From contig SCRD01000008.1 of the NCBI GenBank assembly GCA_004298155.1, forward strand, positions 372,001 to 436,000: a DNA stretch of 64,000 nucleotides. Reading direction: 5' to 3'. The position numbers were made by a program, and so were the translations under genes. The notes below the pieces were generated by a model. That model was not told where the DNA came from, searched no databases, and saw only the letters and a list, made by a program, of their open reading frames with translations. Position 1 is the first letter of the stretch, and each line of letters opens with the position of its first letter. This DNA is from Acidobacteriota bacterium. GTDB lineage: Bacteria; Acidobacteriota; Terriglobia; UBA7540. Shown in pieces: positions 31,354 through 41,049 of this stretch.

Positions 31354-32583
31354 ATGAAAAGTCTGGAACCAACTGGACCGCCGCCGGTGAAGTGGCTCAA
31401 TCGAAATGTTGTGGGCATGGGCCTGACCAGTCTGCTTTCTGACGTCAGCCATGAAATGGCCACGGCGGTGCTGCCGGGCTTCCTGACGGCAATGGGAATT
31501 TCCGCCGCAGCGCTGGGGCTGATTGAAGGCGTGGCGGACGGTGTGTCCAGTTTCGTCAAGCTTGCTGCGGGATGGCTTTCCGACCGCGCCGGGCGCCGCA
31601 AGCCGATTGCCGTGGGCGGCTATTTCATCACCGGAAGTTCCACAGCGCTCTTCGCTCTGGCCGCCGGCTGGCCGCTGGTGTTATTCGGGCGCGCTCTGGG
31701 ATGGTTCGGCCGGGGCATCCGCTCGCCGGCAAGGAACGCCATTCTGGCGGCATCGGTCCCGCCGGAATCGCGCGGCAAGGCGTTTGGATTCGAGCGCGCG
31801 GGCGATACCGTGGGAGCCATCCTCGGTCCGCTCATCGCCGTAGCTTTGCTGGCGCATTTTCAACCCCGCGCCGCCAATCCCTCCGCTCCTTTTCGCGCCA
31901 TCTTCCTGCTCACGCTGGTTCCTGGCCTCGCCTGCGGAATCGTGTTTGCTCTGCTGGTCCGGGAAAAGCCCATTCCCGGCACGCCCGCAAAATTCCTCTC
32001 CGCAATTAGACAATTGCCAAAGAGCTTCCGGCGCTTTCTTGTGGGCGTGGGAGTTTTTGGCATGGGCGACTTTGCGCACACGCTGATGATTCTTGCGGCC
32101 ACGCAGCTTCTAATGCCCGCGCATGGCATGGCGCGCGCCGCGGAAATTGCCGCGCTGCTCTATGTGGGGCACAACATCGTCTATGCAGCGGCCTCGTATC
32201 CTGTGGGAGCGCTATCTGACCGGCTTGGCCGCCGCGGCCTGCTGGCGGCCGGATACCTGGTGGGCGCGCTCGCGGCTGCCGGCCTCATCGCGGCCTTTGC
32301 CTGGCAACTCGATTCAATTTCTTATCTGGCCATCGTGTTCGCGGTTGGCGGATTTTATATGGCGTTTGAAGAAGCCCTGGAAGGAACATTCACCGCAGAC
32401 CTTGTCGGGCCGGAAATTCGCGGCACCGCTTACGGCCTGCTGGGCGCTGTAAACGGAATCGGCGACCTCGCCGCCAGCGTCGTGGTCGGTGGCCTGTGGA
32501 CTCTGGCTTCTCCCGCCGCGGCCTTTGCCTATGCAGCGTGCCTGATGCTCACCGGCGCCGTGCTCGTCTACCGCCTCCGTTGA
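31354..32583 (+). CDS. MFS transporter
   Basis: A 409-residue major facilitator with about twelve membrane helices. The loop 2-3 signature is GWLSDRAGRRKPIAVGGY, and the mirrored one in the second half is GALSDRLGRRGLLAAGY. The conserved ARNAILAASVPPESRGKAFGFERAGDTVGA resembles exporters of the drug or metabolite efflux type. The frame is open upstream to 31255, but that part is translated repeat. The ATG at 31354 gives the usual N-terminus (WLNRNVVGMGLTSLLSDVSHEM). Substrate unknown; it could equally be an importer. It stands directly before the RAYT/REP block, which begins right after its stop. Confidence 0.88.
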   Translation: MKSLEPTGPPPVKWLNRNVVGMGLTSLLSDVSHEMATAVLPGFLTAMGISAAALGLIEGVADGVSSFVKLAAGWLSDRAGRRKPIAVGGYFITGSSTALFALAAGWPLVLFGRALGWFGRGIRSPARNAILAASVPPESRGKAFGFERAGDTVGAILGPLIAVALLAHFQPRAANPSAPFRAIFLLTLVPGLACGIVFALLVREKPIPGTPAKFLSAIRQLPKSFRRFLVGVGVFGMGDFAHTLMILAATQLLMPAHGMARAAEIAALLYVGHNIVYAAASYPVGALSDRLGRRGLLAAGYLVGALAAAGLIAAFAWQLDSISYLAIVFAVGGFYMAFEEALEGTFTADLVGPEIRGTAYGLLGAVNGIGDLAASVVVGGLWTLASPAAAFAYAACLMLTGAVLVYRLR

Positions 32584-32663
32584 GGCCCCGGCGGCGTGCA
32601 ATGCCGTTGCCTGCAGCCCTTGCCAATCAGCGGCTTGATTCGCCGCGCCGGGTGAGGGGTTCC

Positions 32664-32696
32664 CGTAGCGCGGTCCTTTACGGGCCGCGGCCCTTG
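32664..32696 (+). repeat. Palindromic repeat, left direct copy flanking RAYT
   Basis: CGTAGCGCGGTCCTTTACGG and the adjoining CCGCGGCCCTTG. The second copy, in the same orientation, is at 33526-33558 with 30 of 33 positions identical. The core GCGGxCC...GGGCCGC can fold back on itself. Confidence 0.7.
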
Positions 32697-32798
32697 TGGT
32701 GTCTCCATCACCCTGATCATTGCTTGAAACGGCAGAGTGGGTAGCGCAGACCGCCGTGGCCGCGGTCTGCGGCTTTTGTGCTCGTTTGTTCAAAAATC

Positions 32799-32873
32799 CG
32801 CGGCTGGCGCAGACGCTTGCCTTGTAGGGTCTGCGTTCTCGCGAAGCGAGAGGCATTTAGTTGTTTTCATCCC
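32799..32873 (+). repeat. REP element copy A (plus orientation)
   Basis: Begins CGCGGCTGGCGCAGACGCTT, contains CTTGTAGGGTCTGCG, GCGAAGCGAG and ends TTAGTTGTTTTCATCC. The inverted copy at 33918-33992 shares almost the whole length. It overlaps the last codons of the RAYT gene. Confidence 0.75.
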
Positions 32874-33418
32874 ACCCGATCCATTGCAATCAGAGTGCTG
32901 TCCTCTAAAAAATAAAAGCGCCAGCTTGACCATGACCATTCACCCGGCGAGCTGACCAGCCTTCGCGCCACGGGATTGTGGTGCATGTAATCCAGCTTTT
33001 CCAGTTGCTTCTTTTCGCTGTAGATGCCGTAGGGGTAAAACCGCCGCTGCCAGAGGCGGTGGTGCGATTCATCATGGACCGCCGGCGGCAGCGCCAGACG
33101 CGCCAGCATCTTCCGGCGCCATTTTCTGTCCTGATTTTCGCGCAACTCCTTCAGGATGCTGGTAGCGGTGCGGCTCTTGAGGCGCTGGATAATCCGGCTG
33201 GTGGCTTCCGCCGACTCCGGCTTGAGCAGCAGATGGAAGTGGTCCGGCATGAGCACCCAGCCGATCAGCAGAGAGCCGGTGGCTTTCCGAGCCTCGGCCA
33301 GCGTGTCCGCAAAGCAGCGGCAGAAACGTTCGGAGCGAAACAGCGGCGCGCGGCGGTACACGCTTGAGGTGATGAATTGCAGTTCTCCCGGAATGTATGG
33401 GAACCTTGGCGATGGCAT
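32867..33418 (-). CDS. REP-associated tyrosine transposase (RAYT, Y1/IS200-like)
   Basis: A 183-residue transposase of the Y1_Tnp/RAYT class. It begins YIPGELQFITSSVYRRAPLF. The HUH motif MPDHFHLLLKP is intact. The C-terminal half has the RAYT pattern HRLWQRRFYPYGIYSEKKQL, with the candidate catalytic Tyr, then LDYMHHNPVARRLV and EWSWSSWRFY. RAYTs are single-copy relatives of IS200 transposases that bind and probably cleave REP hairpins as single strands. Copies of a 50-75-base palindromic repeat lie on both sides of this gene. The gene appears intact; its stop lies within or next to the left REP copy. Confidence 0.92.
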   Translation of the reverse strand: MPSPRFPYIPGELQFITSSVYRRAPLFRSERFCRCFADTLAEARKATGSLLIGWVLMPDHFHLLLKPESAEATSRIIQRLKSRTATSILKELRENQDRKWRRKMLARLALPPAVHDESHHRLWQRRFYPYGIYSEKKQLEKLDYMHHNPVARRLVSSPGEWSWSSWRFYFLEDSTLIAMDRVG

Positions 33419-33455
33419 GGCTCCGTACCATATATCTAGGGGCCCATCAAGACCA

Positions 33456-33508
33456 GTCCCTTCGGGACTACGCAGACACTACAAAGCAAGCGTCTGCGCC
33501 AGCCCCGC
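33456..33508 (-). repeat. REP element copy B (minus orientation)
   Basis: Read on the minus strand it begins GCGGGGCTGGCGCAGACGCT, contains CTTTGTAGTGTCTGCG, and ends in GTCCCGAAGGGAC. It shares the core of copy A but has a different hairpin tip. Confidence 0.7.
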
Positions 33509-33525
33509 TTTGCGGGGAGGGATTT

Positions 33526-33558
33526 CGTAGCGCGGCCCTTCACGGGCCGCGGCTCTTG
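33526..33558 (+). repeat. Palindromic repeat, right direct copy flanking RAYT
   Basis: CGTAGCGCGGCCCTTCACGG followed by GCCGCGGCTCTTG; a direct copy of 32664-32696 on the other side of the transposase gene. Confidence 0.7.
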
Positions 33559-33597
33559 CATCCCGCAATCCGGGGTCCTGGTCGGGGTGGATCGTAG

Positions 33598-33616
33598 GGG
33601 AGGGCTCTGCCCTCCC
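33598..33616. repeat. Perfect 8-bp hairpin
   Basis: GGGAGGGC, loop TCT, GCCCTCCC. One of several palindromes in the RAYT neighbourhood. Confidence 0.6.
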
Positions 33617-33815
33617 GCTGTTTGGCTCAGGATGAATCTAATTCTGTGATCGCATACATCCCATACTCCGTGACGTATGCGCCACCCGCGAAGGCTGATC
33701 TGGGCAAAAATGTGCTATACAAATACGTGGCTGGCGCAGAGGCGGTTTCAGTCTCTGCGATCCCCAACGGACTGGATTGGCAGGTGGCGCGGCAGCGGCT
33801 GAACATGGGCGCCAC

Positions 33816-33873
33816 GTGGCACGGCCATCGTGGTCCCGGCTGGGCGAGGTCACGAGCGGGACGCCCGTGCCAC
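33816..33873. repeat. Inverted repeat GTGGCACGG/CCGTGCCAC
   Basis: Perfect 9-bp outer arms at 33816-33824 and 33865-33873, with further partial pairing inside (GTCCCG...CGGGAC). It has the form of an extragenic palindrome. Confidence 0.6.
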
Positions 33874-33917
33874 AAGTGCTGCCCGTGACGCTTGACTGGC
33901 ATCGCGATGGACCGCTT

Positions 33918-33992
33918 GGAATGAAAACAACCAAGTGGCCCTCGCTTCGCGAAACCACAGATACTACAAGACAAACATCTGCGCCAGCCGCG
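33918..33992 (-). repeat. REP element copy C (minus orientation)
   Basis: On the minus strand it begins CGCGGCTGGCGCAGATGTTT, contains CTTGTAGTATCTGTGG and GCGAAGCGAGGG, and ends TGGTTGTTTTCATTCC. This matches copy A over about 75 bases, in inverted orientation, on the far side of the RAYT gene. Confidence 0.75.
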
Positions 33993-34129
33993 AGAATTCT
34001 ACAATTTGAGTTGGCCTTACTTGGCTTGCACGAGTCCACCAGGTGCTTCCTCGTTGCAGTTCCAGATGTTATTGACTAGAATTCCCTTGCGCTTTTCTCC
34101 GCAGGCGTTCGCGCATCGGGGGTCTTGTC

Positions 34130-34360
34130 TTGGCTGCATCTCTGACAGAATTTGTGGAAGCTCTTCAGAATTTAATCACGAAATTTGAAAACGACAAGGC
34201 GTACTACCTTTCAAAAAATTATCCAGAGACGCAGGCCCGCATTGGCTTCATCGACCCGCTCTTCCGGGCGTTGGGCTGGGACATTGAGAATCAGGTGGGG
34301 CTTTCGCTCGGGTGGTTGTCTTTCGGGCCAATTGGAGCTACCTTACAGTCCATCGTCTGA
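34130..34360 (+). pseudogene. N-terminal remnant of a type IIG / Eco57I-like restriction-modification protein
   Basis: The 76 codons from a TTG at 34130 read LTEFVEALQNLITKFENDKA, then YPETQARIGFIDPLFRALGW and DIENQ. This is the typical opening of large type IIG or Eco57I-like R-M enzymes: a helix, then NExxxRxxFIDPFFxxLGWDV. Full proteins have about 1000 residues with nuclease and methyltransferase domains. Here homology ends near codon 60 (about 34310), and the frame stops at 34360, shortly before the helicase gene opens in another frame. It is a deletion remnant or a short leftover domain. The helicase ATG follows 53 bases after the stop. Confidence 0.65.
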
Positions 34361-34412
34361 GACTGACCGGAAATCCCGGGCAGTAAATCCTTCGATCGAC
34401 TTCGGCCATCAG

Positions 34413-37400
34413 ATGAAACAATACAACCTCAACAACCTCGTAGGTTCGCTCAGAAATTCTCTCCTCAGCTACATGTGTTCTTCTCTTCCAGTTGGGAATC
34501 ACAGCACCCAGGAGAAGCTCGGCGAGGAGTTTTACAAGCGCTGGGAAGCAACCACATTTAAAGGCCCGTTCTTAGAAGGTATTCCTATATACCCCAAGAC
34601 TGTACCGCCCAAACAAATGTTCTCCGGCGACCCGGGATCGCCCGAGCGCGCAGAAAGATTCGCCAGCCTTATAACGCCTAGATTCAATGCAGACGACTTC
34701 GCAGATCGCCTACTTCGAAATGGGAAGCCCGAGCGTGTCGTAGAAAATTGCAGAGCAGATGAGTTGCGACAGTTATGGGAAAGACAGCTTTATGAACACC
34801 AGTACCGCGCGTTTAAAGTTGCTACCGAAGGGCGAAATCTCGCCGTAGCCACCGGCACCGGCAGCGGAAAAACAGAGTGCTTCATGCTTCCACTCCTTTA
34901 TTCATTGCTGACGGAGCCGGAGGAGGTTCGACGGCAGCCTGCGGTGCGAGCACTGCTCCTGTATCCAATGAACGCTCTCGTCGAGGACCAGATGCGTCGG
35001 CTGAGGACTCTCCTATGTTGGATCAACGGGCAGAGTGAACTGGCCGGCGGCGGTGACGCCAGGCTCACACGGCGAGTCACGTTCGGCAGGTACGTCGGAA
35101 CGACTCGGCTGAGCCCGAAGGATCCGTCTCGTGATCGATCTGACCCGGCGGGACATATCGCCGAACTTGGTGAAATGCTTTATCGGGAGGACATGCAGCA
35201 AACCCCTCCCGACATCCTTATCACAAACTTTTCCATGCTGGAATACATGCTCCTGCGAAACGACGACAAGCGCCTATTTTCAAAACCGGAACTGTTCCGC
35301 TTCCTAGTGCTCGATGAGGTACATTCCTATCGTGGAACACAAGGGATGGAAGTGGCGTGCCTTTTGCGCCGTCTCGATGACCTGTTGCATCGGAAAGCAA
35401 ACGGTCATGAAGTCCATTATCAGCGGATCGGGCTAAGTGCCACGCTGCCAAGTGACGCCTCTAGCCGCAAGCAGCTTGCTAAGTTCGTCTCAGACCTTTT
35501 CGGCACCGAATTTCGGGAAGACTCTCTCATCGCGGAGCCGGAAATTCAACCGGGCCGCCAAATCCTCGCAGGGCACTGGCCCGGGCTCGGACAGGATCTG
35601 ATCGAGCTTTCCCAGACAGCTCCCACGCTATGGGCGGAATTTGGCCTGGAGGGAGCCAAAGAAAGGCGCGAGGACATTCCTGAAGGCGAATGGGAAACGT
35701 TGGCGGTGACGCTTGAGTCGGCTGAAACTGCGCCGGGAGAGGATTTTGAGCGCAATGAGCGGCTAGGACGTATTCTCAAAACTAGTCCCATTTACGCCAC
35801 GCTTGGCTCGATGATTCATCAAAGGAAGGTGAACGATTTCGGCGAGGTCGCCATGAATCTGTTCGGTGGCAAGCTGGACGCGCACCAAACAGAAAGAGCG
35901 CTCGGAATTCTTTTGCAACTGATCTGCGCTGGCGCCATTGATGGCTCCGGGTTGCTGCCACTACGCGCGCACTTCTTTGTAAAGGAACAGAGGGAGGCGC
36001 AGTTGTGCATATCCCCAGCGCACACCCCGGCTGCCGAAAGAGAAACAGACGGATGGTGGAAGCGAGCCTACATGGTTCACCACACGCGCTGCGATGACTG
36101 CGATTCGCTGGTCTTTCCTGTCATGCTTTGCCGACGTTGCGGCTTCGTCCTGCTTGAGGCGTGGCTCCGCAATGGGAACTACTTTCCCGAGCCTGATGGC
36201 CTGATGCCCGAGGGCTCCTTTAATCGGGTTCTTTTCCGCCCATCGCGAAGCGTCCCGGGCTACCTGCTGAATAAATTCACCGGCGATCCGCCGGAGGACA
36301 CGCAAATATGCGAATTCGAGATATGCCTCCGGTGCGGCCAGCAGACCGTACTCGGACCGAACGGCGAAGCTGTCACGACATCCCACGCGTGCGGCAAGGC
36401 CAAATTTGTTCGCGTGGTTCAGTGGTCTGCGCCCGCATCGAACGTTCGAATCACCAGATGCCCACACTGTGACCAGCAGTACTACAAAGGGCAGGAAGTT
36501 GTCACCGCTCCTATGCTCTCCCCCTACGGGGCGGCCACCGTTATGCTGGAGGAGGTTAAGCGATTCCTCGACGCACCGTTAGAGCACTCGATTAACAAGG
36601 TCCTCTGCTTCTCGGACAGCCGCCAGCAGGCAGCAAAGATCGCACGCCGACTAGGCCGCACCAATGAAGACTTCGTCTTCCGCCAGCTTGCCTATGACAC
36701 ACTTCGGCAGGCGCCCGGACAGCAACTCACAACCCGCCCACTTGTGGAGAAAATCATTGACAAGTTGCGCGACGATATCGGCCTTGCAGCGTTATTCTGT
36801 GATGAACGTGCGGAGTTTGCCCGCGATACTGACCTGCTTCGTAGACGAGTGTCTACGCTGCTCTTCAGGGAATTCTGCACAGAGTTCCAGACGCTGGAGC
36901 GCCTGGGTATGGTGCGAGTTCGCTATCCCATAGAACTCGTTGCCAGTGGGGCGCAAGCGGTGTCGCAGCATTGGGTGGGACAAAAGCTGATGGCGTCTGA
37001 GCACGAGGCACTGTTTGCAGCATTTCTCGACTGGCATTTCCGGCTGAACCGCTGGGCGGTTACGGCCGCCACCCTCCAGACCCAAATCGAACACAAGGAT
37101 TTGGGCGACCGGTATGGTTACCGAGAAAAAACTGTGGCCCTTTGGAGCGCAGGCTTAGGCGGGCCACTCGGCTTCTGCATGGGGAAGCGCGACTCGCGCA
37201 GCCGAAGGTTCAACTTCTATATACGTGTCTGCCGGAAATTCCCAGTCCTGCAAGGTATCGCCGACCTGGAAGGCTTCAATAAGCTCGCGGAAATAATATG
37301 GAAGCAAACAATCGCCAAGCCTGCTTTCCTGACGCGACAGAGTGAGCGCGGCGGCCCCGATCCAGACAAGCCCTTTGTCATCATCCGCGGCAGTGAACCC

Positions 37401-39476
37401 GAGAAGTTCGAGCTGAAGCTCAACTTTGAGTCTTTTATGTGGGAACTCGCCGGCTCCGAAAATCAGCTCTATCGTTGCAACTACTGTGGCTACGTTGCGG
37501 CCTTCAATGTCCATAGCGTCTGCCCGATGAGGGACTGCGGCGGTGAGTTGCGGTCGGTGACCCTCAACCAGATTACACGAGACCTCTTCTCCCCATCCGG
37601 CCACTATATCCATCTGATCACTGAACGCGAACCGAAACCCATCTGGGTTGAGGAACACACGGCCCAGTTGTCGCCGACGCGGCGCTCGGAAATCGAACGC
37701 GAGTTCCGCAGGGACGAGGTTGGCAGCCTCGATGTAATCTCAGGATCGACAACTTTTGAGTTGGGCGTGGACCTCGGCGAAATAAATAGCATCATGCTCG
37801 CTAATCTCCCTCCGGAAATTTCCAACTATCGCCAGCGGGCAGGCCGTGCAGGCCGGAGGCCGGGCATGCTCCCTTTTATCCTTGGATACGTACGCGAGCG
37901 GCCTCACGACAAGTATTTCTGGTCCGACCTTGAGAAATTCATCGCTGGACCACTTCGGGTTCCGCGGCTGGCGAATCCGAGCCGCGAGATCGTTCTTCGC
38001 CATGCGAATGCGATACTGTATGCATACCTTTTGGATATGTACCCTGCCAAGTGTCCTCTACAAGGGCCGCCGTGCCTGGAATTTACCAACTTCTGCCTAA
38101 ACCCGATTCAAAAAGCGAAAGCTAAAGCTGCGGCCCACGGTGGCCCTCTTAGCGACTCCCTTAGGGCGCTCCTAAGAATTAATCCAGGTCTTAGACTCAC
38201 GACCGAGGAATGCGCCGACCAGTTTTTCAAGACATTGGAGTTCCATGCGTCGCGAAATTTCACAGAACGCGCTGACGACCACTCGATAGATGTTTTAAGC
38301 GATTTCGGGATTCTCCCCAGTTATAGCTTTCCGATCTACGTCGATGAGCTCGTACTGTATCAGAAGCCGCCCTCGGAACCGCCGCGATGCAACTTGAAAC
38401 TCCAGCGTGACAGGCGAATCGGTCTTCGAGAGTACTTTCCAGGAAGGTTGATCGAAGCCGACAAGTGGGTGCTGCAATCTGTAGGCGTAAGAGCAGGCTT
38501 TGAGAGGCGAACAATTTTGGTCTGCGGTAAGTGCGGTCGCGTTCACTCCGACTTGCACCACGGGCCGTGCTCCAACGTGGATTGCGCGGGCCAATGCGAC
38601 GAGCTGCGGGCCATTGTCCCGAAGGGAGGCTTCCTCGGACAGGTTCCCCTTAAGCCGCCGCCGCCCGACTCGGAGCTGTTTGAGCAGCAGGTAAGCGAGG
38701 TAATCTTTGACCCTGCGTCAGACCCCGAGCCAATTCCAGAGAGGAGAGGACGTTTCCTTTTAGCAGCTCGCCAATCTGCTTCTGACATGGCGAACGCAAG
38801 AATGCGAATCTTCAGCCCGCGGCCTTCCAATCCCAAAGGCCTCCAGCTCGTTGAGTCGGACGAAACAGACATCGCAGATAACGCCAGGATGCCCCTGCGC
38901 TGCTTGATGCTGCCAGGCAGAAGTGCAAGCTCAGCGCAGGCATCCCCAAAAGATTTCTATCTTATGCACGAGTTCACGACGGACATTCTCAGGATGCGCT
39001 TTGCAGGGGAATCGGCACCCTACTTGCTATCGTCGCCGCTTTACTGTCGCCTTGCCGAGTCTGGCGACGGCGACGATCGGGTGAAAGCTCAAGCGATTTT
39101 CCGCTACACCTTGGGTCAAGCTCTGGCTACCGCCGCCAGCCGGCGACTCCAGATTGACCCCGCAGAGATGGACTTCACGCTCCGGTCTATTCCTGGCGAA
39201 GTCGCGCTGAATACGGAATTCATCCTTTTTGACACAGCTCCGGGAGGCGCAGGCTATGCCAGCCGCTGCGGAGACGACGGCGAACTTCAGGCCATATTTT
39301 ACGAAGCGGTCCAACTTCTGCAAAAGTGTAAGTGTGCTGATAGTTGCTATAGCTGTTTACGCAGTTACAGCAATCAATGGATGCACGCCCGACTCAACCG
39401 CACGTTCGTTCTTGACGGTTTGCAAGAATTCCTCGGCCAAAACTGGGCGAAGACGCCCGGACCGTCGATGCGATGA
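34413..39476 (+). CDS. Giant DEAD/DEAH-box helicase with DUF1998-type zinc module, defence-associated
   Basis: 1687 residues from the ATG at 34413. The frame is open to 34185, but those codons lie out of frame over the R-M remnant and look non-protein. The SF2 helicase core has Walker A ATGTGSGKTE (about residue 148), DEVH (301-304), SAT (about 341) and motif VI QRAGRAGR (1141-1148). Cysteine pairs lie between and after the helicase motifs: CDDCD/CRRCG near 556, CPHCDQQYY, CNYCGYV and CGKCGRVH. The C-terminus has DTAPGGAGYASRCG and CKCADSCYSCLRSYSNQW, the DUF1998/MZB-type end. This layout matches large helicases such as DruE of Druantia and the helicase plus DUF1998 parts of DISARM, but no other system gene is adjacent except the R-M remnant upstream. 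It probably unwinds or moves on DNA in phage defence; this is inferred from the family. Confidence 0.85.
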   Translation: MKQYNLNNLVGSLRNSLLSYMCSSLPVGNHSTQEKLGEEFYKRWEATTFKGPFLEGIPIYPKTVPPKQMFSGDPGSPERAERFASLITPRFNADDFADRLLRNGKPERVVENCRADELRQLWERQLYEHQYRAFKVATEGRNLAVATGTGSGKTECFMLPLLYSLLTEPEEVRRQPAVRALLLYPMNALVEDQMRRLRTLLCWINGQSELAGGGDARLTRRVTFGRYVGTTRLSPKDPSRDRSDPAGHIAELGEMLYREDMQQTPPDILITNFSMLEYMLLRNDDKRLFSKPELFRFLVLDEVHSYRGTQGMEVACLLRRLDDLLHRKANGHEVHYQRIGLSATLPSDASSRKQLAKFVSDLFGTEFREDSLIAEPEIQPGRQILAGHWPGLGQDLIELSQTAPTLWAEFGLEGAKERREDIPEGEWETLAVTLESAETAPGEDFERNERLGRILKTSPIYATLGSMIHQRKVNDFGEVAMNLFGGKLDAHQTERALGILLQLICAGAIDGSGLLPLRAHFFVKEQREAQLCISPAHTPAAERETDGWWKRAYMVHHTRCDDCDSLVFPVMLCRRCGFVLLEAWLRNGNYFPEPDGLMPEGSFNRVLFRPSRSVPGYLLNKFTGDPPEDTQICEFEICLRCGQQTVLGPNGEAVTTSHACGKAKFVRVVQWSAPASNVRITRCPHCDQQYYKGQEVVTAPMLSPYGAATVMLEEVKRFLDAPLEHSINKVLCFSDSRQQAAKIARRLGRTNEDFVFRQLAYDTLRQAPGQQLTTRPLVEKIIDKLRDDIGLAALFCDERAEFARDTDLLRRRVSTLLFREFCTEFQTLERLGMVRVRYPIELVASGAQAVSQHWVGQKLMASEHEALFAAFLDWHFRLNRWAVTAATLQTQIEHKDLGDRYGYREKTVALWSAGLGGPLGFCMGKRDSRSRRFNFYIRVCRKFPVLQGIADLEGFNKLAEIIWKQTIAKPAFLTRQSERGGPDPDKPFVIIRGSEPEKFELKLNFESFMWELAGSENQLYRCNYCGYVAAFNVHSVCPMRDCGGELRSVTLNQITRDLFSPSGHYIHLITEREPKPIWVEEHTAQLSPTRRSEIEREFRRDEVGSLDVISGSTTFELGVDLGEINSIMLANLPPEISNYRQRAGRAGRRPGMLPFILGYVRERPHDKYFWSDLEKFIAGPLRVPRLANPSREIVLRHANAILYAYLLDMYPAKCPLQGPPCLEFTNFCLNPIQKAKAKAAAHGGPLSDSLRALLRINPGLRLTTEECADQFFKTLEFHASRNFTERADDHSIDVLSDFGILPSYSFPIYVDELVLYQKPPSEPPRCNLKLQRDRRIGLREYFPGRLIEADKWVLQSVGVRAGFERRTILVCGKCGRVHSDLHHGPCSNVDCAGQCDELRAIVPKGGFLGQVPLKPPPPDSELFEQQVSEVIFDPASDPEPIPERRGRFLLAARQSASDMANARMRIFSPRPSNPKGLQLVESDETDIADNARMPLRCLMLPGRSASSAQASPKDFYLMHEFTTDILRMRFAGESAPYLLSSPLYCRLAESGDGDDRVKAQAIFRYTLGQALATAASRRLQIDPAEMDFTLRSIPGEVALNTEFILFDTAPGGAGYASRCGDDGELQAIFYEAVQLLQKCKCADSCYSCLRSYSNQWMHARLNRTFVLDGLQEFLGQNWAKTPGPSMR

Positions 39477-39531
39477 TGCCACGGCGAAGAACACTCGCGG
39501 GACGGGGCCGGAGTTGAACAAGCGTAGGCAT

Positions 39532-39584
39532 CGCGGCTGGGGCAGACATTGATGTTTAACATCTGCGGTCAGCGAAGCTGAGGG
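39532..39584 (+). repeat. REP element copy D (plus orientation, degenerate)
   Basis: Begins CGCGGCTGGGGCAGACATTG, continues TTTAACATCTGCGG and AGCGAAGCTGAGG. It starts 56 bases after the helicase stop and is inverted relative to copy C, so the R-M remnant and helicase are bracketed by inverted copies. Confidence 0.6.
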
Positions 39585-39671
39585 GGAGAATGGAGTGCCG
39601 TCAGAATCTCCCCGCGCGAAATTGCATCGACGATGGCAATGGAACGGCTGGTAGCGATGAACGTCAAGGCT

Positions 39672-39708
39672 CTCTTGCTTCGCGAGGTAGCAGCACTACA
39701 AGGCGAGG
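39672..39708 (-). repeat. REP element copy E (minus orientation, degenerate)
   Basis: CTCTTGCTTCGCGAGGTAGC then AGCACTACAAGGCGAGG resembles the half of copy C that reads CTCGCTTCGCGAAACCACAG and ATACTACAAG. Weak but in the expected order. Confidence 0.4.
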
Positions 39709-39811
39709 ATCCACCATCCGCCTGAAAGGGCGCGCGATTCGTATTGGCAATAGCCCGTGCGTTATTCCAGTACTTCATCCTTCGGGTTGGGTACTGTCCT
39801 TCTTTCGAATT

Positions 39812-39859
39812 GTAGAGGCGAGTTTACCTCGCCATTTGGCGGCGTAAAGCCGCCTCTAC
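39812..39859. repeat. 48-base near-palindrome
   Basis: The outer arms GTAGAGGCG and CGCCTCTAC are perfect, and the inner arms AGTTTACCTCGCC and GGCGGCGTAAAGC match at 10 of 13 positions around an ATTT loop. The form is that of a mobile extragenic palindrome; it could fold into a long hairpin in either strand. Confidence 0.75.
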
Positions 39860-40359
39860 GCTCAAATCAGGACACCACCCGGGATTGAGCGGACTTAGCG
39901 CCGACCGCCGGCCGCGCGGGTGCTGGAGTTCAACAAACACAAGCATCGTGGAACGCGGGCGCCACGCCCGTGAGCGCCGATGGGCAGGCCCGTCCTGAGC
40001 GGACCGAACGGGATGCTCAATGCCACAGGTGGAGGGAAACGCCCTGATAGTTGTCCGGAGGCTATTTTTCTCCCCACGGCCGAGGGCCGAAAGAGGGGAA
40101 GGGCAGTCATCTTTCTTCTGAGTAGGCCTTATAACATAGGCTACATACAGGTCGCAATAAGCCCCAAATGGGACGTTTGGGATTTTTGTCCCACAAAAAA
40201 TGTGATTTCGTAAGTCACAGATAATAAATAACTTGTCGAATTTATACAACGCGAAAATTGATTCAGATCAAGAAATCTGTTTATTTCTGGAACAGTGGGT
40301 AAAAATTACAAAAAGGCGGTTTGTTGGTTCCGGCGTGCGGGCGGTTGGCGCTCGGAGCA

Positions 40360-41049
40360 CTATTCGTCTTCGCCGCTGAAGATATAAATCCCGCCCATGT
40401 GGACTTTGAGTGAGATGTCCTGCGTCCCCGTAGCGTTCCAGAAGAGAACCTTCTTGCTGAACCCTGCGTCGTTCTCTCCGTGCAGGTCGCTCTGGACGTT
40501 GCCCAGCCAGGTTTTGGCGCGCACCGACCTCAGCCGACCGACCGAGGGGACGTCGATTTCCACCTGTCCGTAATTCACCGTAATTGTTTCCTGTCCCGCA
40601 ACTCCGCGGACGGTAACATCTCCATCCACGCACTTGATGACCAGGTTGCAGTCGTAGGGCATATGAATATGGAAATCTACGGAAAGGTTGGATTCGCCGT
40701 GAAAGGGACGCCACGGCCTGCGGGGTGGATATAAGGTGTAGAGGTGGAGCATCTCATCCTGGCCATCCAGCAGAACCTGGATCCGCTGGTATTGTTGCTC
40801 GGCCGCCTCCCTGGAACTGGCGTGCACAACTTTCTCCGCCTCGATCTCCACGTGCGGGTCATCCCAGCCGGTGATGTAAATGTCGCCAGTGCGCACCTCC
40901 ATGGTGAAAGTCGCGGATGAAAACAGACGGCGGTTGTAATGTGAGGTCTGCCGGAATTCGTCGGCGCGGGCGGGCAGCGCAAAAAAAACCAGGCTGCAAA
41001 AGGCCACGAGCAAAACGTGCTGAAATGTTTTCGCGTGAAATTTCCGCAT
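40360..41049 (-). CDS. DUF4097-like beta-helix protein, exported
   Basis: About 229 residues from the ATG at 41049. The frame can start 14 codons earlier at a TTG that overlaps the TPR gene stop, but that would put a long polar stretch before the signal peptide (FQHVLLVAFCSLVFFALPARA). The mature part has short repeated strands of the DUF4097/putative auto-adhesin type: TFTMEVRTGDIYITGWDDP, NLVIKCVDGDVTVRGVAG, ITVNYGQVEIDVPSVGRL and DISLKVHMGGIYIFSG. Such proteins are predicted right-handed beta-helices at the cell surface or in the periplasm, with unknown role. It directly follows the TPR gene and is probably cotranscribed with it. Confidence 0.78.
   Translation of the reverse strand: MRKFHAKTFQHVLLVAFCSLVFFALPARADEFRQTSHYNRRLFSSATFTMEVRTGDIYITGWDDPHVEIEAEKVVHASSREAAEQQYQRIQVLLDGQDEMLHLYTLYPPRRPWRPFHGESNLSVDFHIHMPYDCNLVIKCVDGDVTVRGVAGQETITVNYGQVEIDVPSVGRLRSVRAKTWLGNVQSDLHGENDAGFSKKVLFWNATGTQDISLKVHMGGIYIFSGEDE

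What the first reader, a model, noticed from the sequence alone, without database searches (positions are those of the whole stretch)
34130..39476. Broken R-M N-terminus fused in tandem to a giant DUF1998-type helicase: possible deleted or minimal defence system
The first 60 or so codons at 34130 match the opening of type IIG/Eco57I-like restriction-modification proteins and then stop. A 1687-residue DEAH helicase with cysteine clusters and a DUF1998-like end begins 53 bases later. Large helicases of this type are known parts of Druantia and DISARM, which also include methyltransferases. No other partner is next to it. Either a larger defence island was cut down by a deletion that removed most of an R-M gene, or the helicase acts alone with a short R-M-derived DNA-recognition peptide. 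The second would be new.
Basis: partly seen in the sequence, partly recalled or inferred. Interest (0 to 1): 0.8.

Follow-up and report, generated by a model that had tools for sequence, protein, structure and literature searches.

The report
Defence helicase inside restriction gene remains
A large, intact phage-defence-type helicase gene sits between the broken start and the worn-down end of a restriction enzyme gene, and similar start and end scars flank other defence-type genes in related bacteria, which hints that this restriction gene is a recurrent site of gene turnover.

Summary
Bases 34130-34306 are the first 58 codons of a type IIG (Eco57I-like) restriction-modification gene; DNA homology to an IIG gene of a same-family genome starts 83 bases upstream (34047) and stops at 34307. 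The ORF 34413-39476 (1687 aa) is an intact DruE-like helicase (DEAD, Helicase_C, MZB/DUF1998) without C-terminal nuclease or adjacent DruH.

The 'recognition peptide' reading fails: the stub lacks the nuclease motif, methylase and recognition domain, and neither the one full-length ortholog nor any other DruE-like locus examined has it. The 'deletion' reading is only partly right: worn IIG 3'-end sequence also lies downstream (39907-39963, clear; 39507-39537, weak). So the helicase lies inside the shell of an IIG gene, in a segment (about 32585-40115) that is empty in one relative and filled differently in another.

Relatives show the same scars: IIG stub / PstI-type R-M / tail; stub / TIR gene / tail; IIG / other gene / tail; about nine loci, two of them outside the family. 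I judge the helicase a DruH-less relative of Druantia III-like DruE, and the IIG shell a recurrent site of gene turnover. Antiphage function is untested.

The parts
34047..34129 (+). upstream (possible promoter/leader) region of the former type IIG gene
   Evidence: part of the 261-bp, 73% identical DNA match to G014:C346
34130..34306 (+). type IIG restriction-modification gene stub, residues 1-58 (TTG start); homology ends at 34307
   Evidence: PADLOC REase_MTase_IIG 3.4e-13; 74% aa identity to G014; dN/dS 0.14, no stop or frameshift
34307..34412 (+). junction and leader: no IIG homology; the stub frame stops at 34360
34413..39476 (+). DruE-like SF2 helicase, 1687 aa, intact, no C-terminal nuclease
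   Evidence: PADLOC DruE1 4.2e-151; Pfam DEAD, Helicase_C, MZB; ortholog in G133, 39% identical over full length
34854..34874 (+). Walker A motif GTGSGKT (residues 148-154)
   Evidence: alignment, invariant in G133
35313..35324 (+). Walker B box DEVH (residues 301-304)
37833..37856 (+). helicase motif VI QRAGRAGR (residues 1141-1148)
39114..39359 (+). MZB (MrfA zinc-binding, former DUF1998) domain, residues 1568-1649; the protein ends 38 residues later
   Evidence: Pfam PF09369 1.6e-10
39507..39537 (+). weak relic of an IIG 3' end (ELNKRRHRG)
   Evidence: E 0.065 and 0.69 with two tail profiles; 6.3 bits against a best of 5.0 in 2000 shuffles
39907..39963 (+). relic of an IIG 3' end (RVLEFNKHKHRGTRAP; IIG residues about 1002-1017)
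   Evidence: best hit of a tail profile built without the window: E 5e-4, 16.6 bits, best hit in 475 kb of control DNA 7.4 bits
32867..33418 (-). REP-associated IS200-like (Y1) transposase gene, neighbour on the left within the accessory segment
   Evidence: Pfam Y1_Tnp 3.8e-10; inverted arms 32799-32890 / 33901-33992
32585..40115 (.). accessory segment that holds all of the above; absent in G014, replaced by about 11 kb of other sequence in G001

Best explanation
An intact, horizontally acquired DruE-like helicase gene (Druantia III-like in build, nuclease-less, without DruH) lies inside the remains of a type IIG restriction-modification gene. Shown: the 5' end of the IIG gene with its upstream region stands just before the helicase; at least one short worn relic of an IIG 3' end stands after it; the stretch is accessory; IIG genes of the same kind carry N-terminal stubs and extra 3' tails around other genes in relatives. 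Inferred: foreign genes replaced, or were inserted into, the IIG locus by recombination that left its conserved ends as scars, and the helicase may now be read from the former IIG promoter. Inferred for function: like DruE and MrfA, the protein uses ATP to load on single-stranded 3' DNA ends and unwind; with no nuclease of its own and no DruH beside it, it should need a partner encoded elsewhere, or serve in DNA repair. The IIG stub takes no part.
For: Stub identity and break at 34307. Helicase family and integrity. Tail relics downstream. Patchy distribution: one full-length ortholog (G133) among 200 relatives and about 800 class and phylum genomes drawn, none in the other genus or family genomes. 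Accessory site: G014 has the two flanking genes about 100 bp apart, G001 has 11 kb between them. Recurrent shell: G018:C169 stub - Eco57I-type methylase + BsuBI/PstI endonuclease - tail; G018:C422 stub/tail - TIR - tail; G027:C23, G027:C122, G024:C6 and G004:C162 IIG - gene - tail; G440 and G454 outside the family. DruE mechanism from papers: PMC13192584 (DruE loads on 3' ssDNA-containing DNA, nuclease domains apart), PMC13316683 (DruH and DruE act together; DruE homologs alone give no defence), PMC12458937 (Druantia III-like helicases most often lack a nuclease).
Against: The downstream relics are short (57 and about 31 bases) and only one is clearly significant. Some IIG stubs in relatives (G009:C413, G011:C195) are followed by ordinary genes, so plain decay next to an unrelated helicase is possible. 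Two tails of one locus are sometimes closer to tails of other loci than to each other, so the recombination route is not settled. A DruH elsewhere in the genome was not excluded. The tree placing the helicase is a quick one with long branches.
Confidence: 0.7

Rival explanations
1. Chance neighbours: an IIG gene decayed to a stub and an unrelated helicase gene came to lie beside it; the downstream tail matches are accidental.
For: IIG stubs followed by ordinary genes occur in relatives (G009:C413, G011:C195). The second tail match is weak.
Against: The best tail hit in about 540 kb of window plus control DNA lies 431 bp behind the helicase, on the same strand, and stub-gene-tail or gene-tail arrangements recur in about nine other loci.
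Confidence: 0.2
2. A functional IIG-helicase pair was cut down by one internal deletion.
For: The IIG start stands directly before the helicase on the same strand.
Against: No IIG gene of a relative has this helicase beside it; no other DruE-like helicase examined has an IIG N-terminus beside it; IIG 3' sequence lies behind, not before, the helicase.
Confidence: 0.06
3. The 76-residue frame is a working recognition peptide for the helicase.
For: The stub is still open and shows few amino-acid changes (dN/dS 0.14 against G014).
Against: It holds neither the nuclease motif nor the recognition domain; it is absent beside the ortholog in G133; the low dN/dS largely reflects the time before the break.
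Confidence: 0.02

Closest known systems
Druantia type III / III-like (DruH-DruE)
   Same: DruE-like helicase with the same N-terminal start, helicase core, cysteine clusters and MZB end; size close to the 1667-aa DruE of M. smegmatis (PMC13316683); lacks a nuclease, as most III-like helicases do (PMC12458937)
   Different: no DruH-like gene beside it; together with G133 it forms its own deep branch
MrfA/YprA repair helicase
   Same: same family of SF2 helicases, DEAD - Helicase_C - MZB order
   Different: twice as long; the genome has a separate MZB helicase of about 816 aa on contig C25
Type IIG restriction-modification enzymes (Eco57I-like)
   Same: the stub and the tail relics derive from such a gene
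   Different: methylase, specificity domain and nuclease motif are missing
R-M gene insertion with long target duplication (Kobayashi group; stated in PMC3031569)
   Same: genes standing between repeated pieces of DNA at an R-M locus
   Different: here the repeated piece is the 3' end of an IIG gene and the gene between the copies is often not an R-M gene

Membership tests
Druantia type III | DruE-like giant helicase with MZB/DUF1998 | tested here: met
   PADLOC DruE1 4.2e-151, DruE3 3.7e-130; Pfam domains
Druantia type III | adjacent DruH gene | tested here: not met
   no large ORF between the stub and the helicase or directly behind it; large partners of other DruE-like loci have no match in the window (best E 0.05); a distant DruH elsewhere in the genome is not excluded
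Druantia type III | C-terminal PLD nuclease domains | tested here: not met
   the protein ends 38 residues after MZB; III-like helicases often lack them (PMC12458937)
Druantia type III | antiphage activity | not testable with these tools
   needs an experiment
DISARM | DrmA helicase with a separate DrmB carrying DUF1998, plus a methylase | tested here: not met
   DrmA only 1.4e-15; MZB is in the same protein; no methylase beside it
Type IIG restriction-modification | nuclease, N6-methylase and specificity domain in one protein | tested here: not met
   only residues 1-58 plus short 3' relics remain

The most novel reading that the evidence does not exclude
In Acidobacteriota the conserved ends of type IIG restriction genes, above all the last 60 or so codons, act as a recombination platform: defence-type genes (TIR, PstI-type R-M, HNH-like, a DruE-like helicase and unknown genes) are swapped in and out between IIG ends, leaving stubs and tail copies as scars, much as displaced orphan tips are left by polymorphic toxins.
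Probability: 0.3. Interest if true: 0.75.

Novelty: new variant of a known kind. Interest (0 to 1): 0.5.

Why it matters
It separates two things that looked like one system. The helicase adds a deep, DruH-less branch to the DruE family. The IIG stub and tails point to a way in which defence genes may be exchanged at a fixed kind of genomic address, which can be tested by comparing strains. If the tail is a true recombination site, searching for IIG tails would find unknown defence genes.

Tried and rejected
Genome-contig and viral scans with the helicase alone confirmed no relative. PADLOC and Pfam had no informative match for the partners of other DruE-like loci. The 210-aa gene behind the G133 helicase has no match in the own genome or in the other loci held then. 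The leader 34307-34412 matched nothing useful. A sigma-70-like site at 34142 lies inside the stub and is near chance. The pattern GGAGTTNAACAANCNNANGCATCGNGG occurs only at the two relics in the own genome, but it was derived from them, so I do not count it as evidence. Single-sequence BLAST of tails against the window gave scores that control DNA can also reach; I rely on the profile instead. In-situ duplication against displacement of tails could not be decided. No structure was predicted: the protein exceeds the length limit and the question did not turn on it.

Full report
Setting. The window lies on contig C8 of a 5.2-Mb assembly. The relative G133, given as 'same class', corresponds to a record titled 'MAG: Acidobacteria bacterium isolate YF1.bin127' with a contig of equal length, so the window is most likely acidobacterial.

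The short frame. ORF 34130-34360 (+) encodes 76 aa. Its residues 10-56 match PADLOC's type IIG profile (3.4e-13), and it is 58% and 52% identical to the N-termini of two annotated plasmid N6-methylase proteins. Against the same-family genome G014 the match is 74% over 58 residues. At DNA level it runs without gaps from 34047 to 34307 (73%, 261 bp) and then drops to 3-7 identical bases of 15. The homology thus includes 83 bp before the start codon. The stub has no stop or frameshift (dN/dS 0.14 against G014), which suggests a fairly recent break. In an intact relative (L147) Pfam finds HSDR_N at residues 31-139, Eco57I at 463-692 and TaqI_C at 817-979. The conserved 'GRPDYSF...FFVEAKAP' stretch of the nuclease lies after residue 70 in the relatives, so the stub keeps neither catalytic residues nor a recognition domain.

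The helicase. ORF 34413-39476 encodes 1687 aa with DEAD, Helicase_C and MZB domains. PADLOC ranks DruE1 (4.2e-151) and the other DruE models far above DpdJ, BrxH and DrmA. By sequence its nearest solved chains are two large helicases (9tu7, 9wae) and MrfA/YprA. The full-length ortholog in G133 is 39% identical, with the motifs GTGSGKT, DEVH and QRAGRAGR conserved. On a tree of 44 DruE-like helicases the two form a separate, fully supported pair with a long stem (quick method, long branches). The protein ends 38 residues after MZB, so it lacks the C-terminal nucleases of Druantia III; PMC12458937 reports that Druantia III-like helicases most often have no nuclease. In published work DruE acts with DruH, and DruE homologs alone give no defence (PMC13316683); DruE of Druantia III engages DNA with single-stranded 3' ends (PMC13192584). 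No DruH-like gene lies beside this helicase, and the large partners of other DruE-like loci have no match in the window.

Distribution. Among 200 relatives only G133 has a full-length match. Wider draws of 399 class and 396 phylum genomes gave only more distant DruE-like hits. None of the DruE-like loci held at that point has an IIG N-terminus near the helicase, although flanks differ in length and G133 has only 1.4 kb upstream. IIG genes of relatives, in turn, have no such helicase beside them.

The site. In G014 the genes that flank the segment (an MFS gene, window 31392-32583, and a DUF4097-like gene, 40378-40986) are about 100 bp apart. In G001 about 11 kb of other sequence lies between them, and other relatives have 0.4-7 kb. 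Window 32585-40115 is therefore accessory. It also holds an IS200-like REP-associated transposase gene with inverted flanking arms.

IIG relics behind the helicase. BLAST with IIG C-termini gave weak matches at 39511-39537 and 39917-39964. A DNA profile of seven IIG 3' ends from other genomes ranked window positions 39910-39963 (E 0.0023) and 39492-39537 (E 0.065) first and second over the window plus control loci. A larger profile of 15 tails gave 39907-39963 at 16.6 bits (E 5e-4) against 7.4 bits for the best of 475 kb of control DNA; the second relic scored 6.4 bits (E 0.69). In 2000 block shuffles of the region the best score was 5.0. I take the first relic as established and the second as likely.

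The same scars elsewhere. G018:C169 reads stub (residues 1-90) - Eco57I-type methylase and BsuBI/PstI endonuclease (4.8e-62) - tail (988-1030). G018:C422 reads stub joined in frame to a tail - TIR gene - second tail. G027:C23, G027:C122, G024:C6 and G004:C162 read IIG - one gene - tail, and G018:C270 reads tail - DUF433 gene - tail. Outside the family, G440:C9 reads IIG - 281-aa gene - tail, and G454:C5 has two further tails among other genes. Stubs followed by ordinary genes also exist (G009:C413, G011:C195), so decay alone explains part of the pattern. Tails of one locus are about 75-88% identical to each other at DNA level and not always each other's best match, which leaves both duplication in place and serial displacement open. 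R-M genes that insert with long target duplications are known (PMC3031569). The few literature searches I ran found no description of IIG tails around other defence genes, which is weak evidence of novelty.

Verdict. The peptide reading is rejected and the single-deletion reading is unlikely. The best account is a DruE-like helicase lodged in the remains of an IIG gene. Its function, its partner and the recombination route are inferred, not shown.

Noticed in passing
window 32799-33992: REP-associated IS200-like transposase gene (32867-33418, -) with inverted repeat arms 32799-32890 / 33901-33992; similar copies elsewhere in this and related genomes.
   Followed up: partly
window 32585-40115; L133, L136, L138, L141: Variable site between an MFS gene and a DUF4097-like gene: about 100 bp in G014, about 11 kb in G001, other lengths in further relatives.
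   Followed up: partly
L171, L172, L149, L180, L181, L210, L211, L245, L246: Type IIG genes or stubs followed by one or more other genes (TIR, PstI-type R-M, HNH-like, DUF433, unknown) and then an extra copy of the IIG 3' end on the same strand.
   Followed up: partly
L094 5743-13661, L096 6501-14362: DruE-like helicase with a roughly 1000-aa partner (PADLOC and Pfam found nothing for the L094 one), lying next to genes that look by eye like CRISPR-Cas effector and Cas4/Cas1 genes.
   Followed up: no
L040 6385-7017: 210-aa gene overlapping the stop of the G133 helicase by four bases, without Pfam or PADLOC match and without a match in the window's genome; possible partner of that helicase.
   Followed up: partly
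L106 5017-9294: A weak IIG methylase-like match (25.6% identity) sits in a 1425-aa ORF directly before a DruE-like helicase.
   Followed up: no
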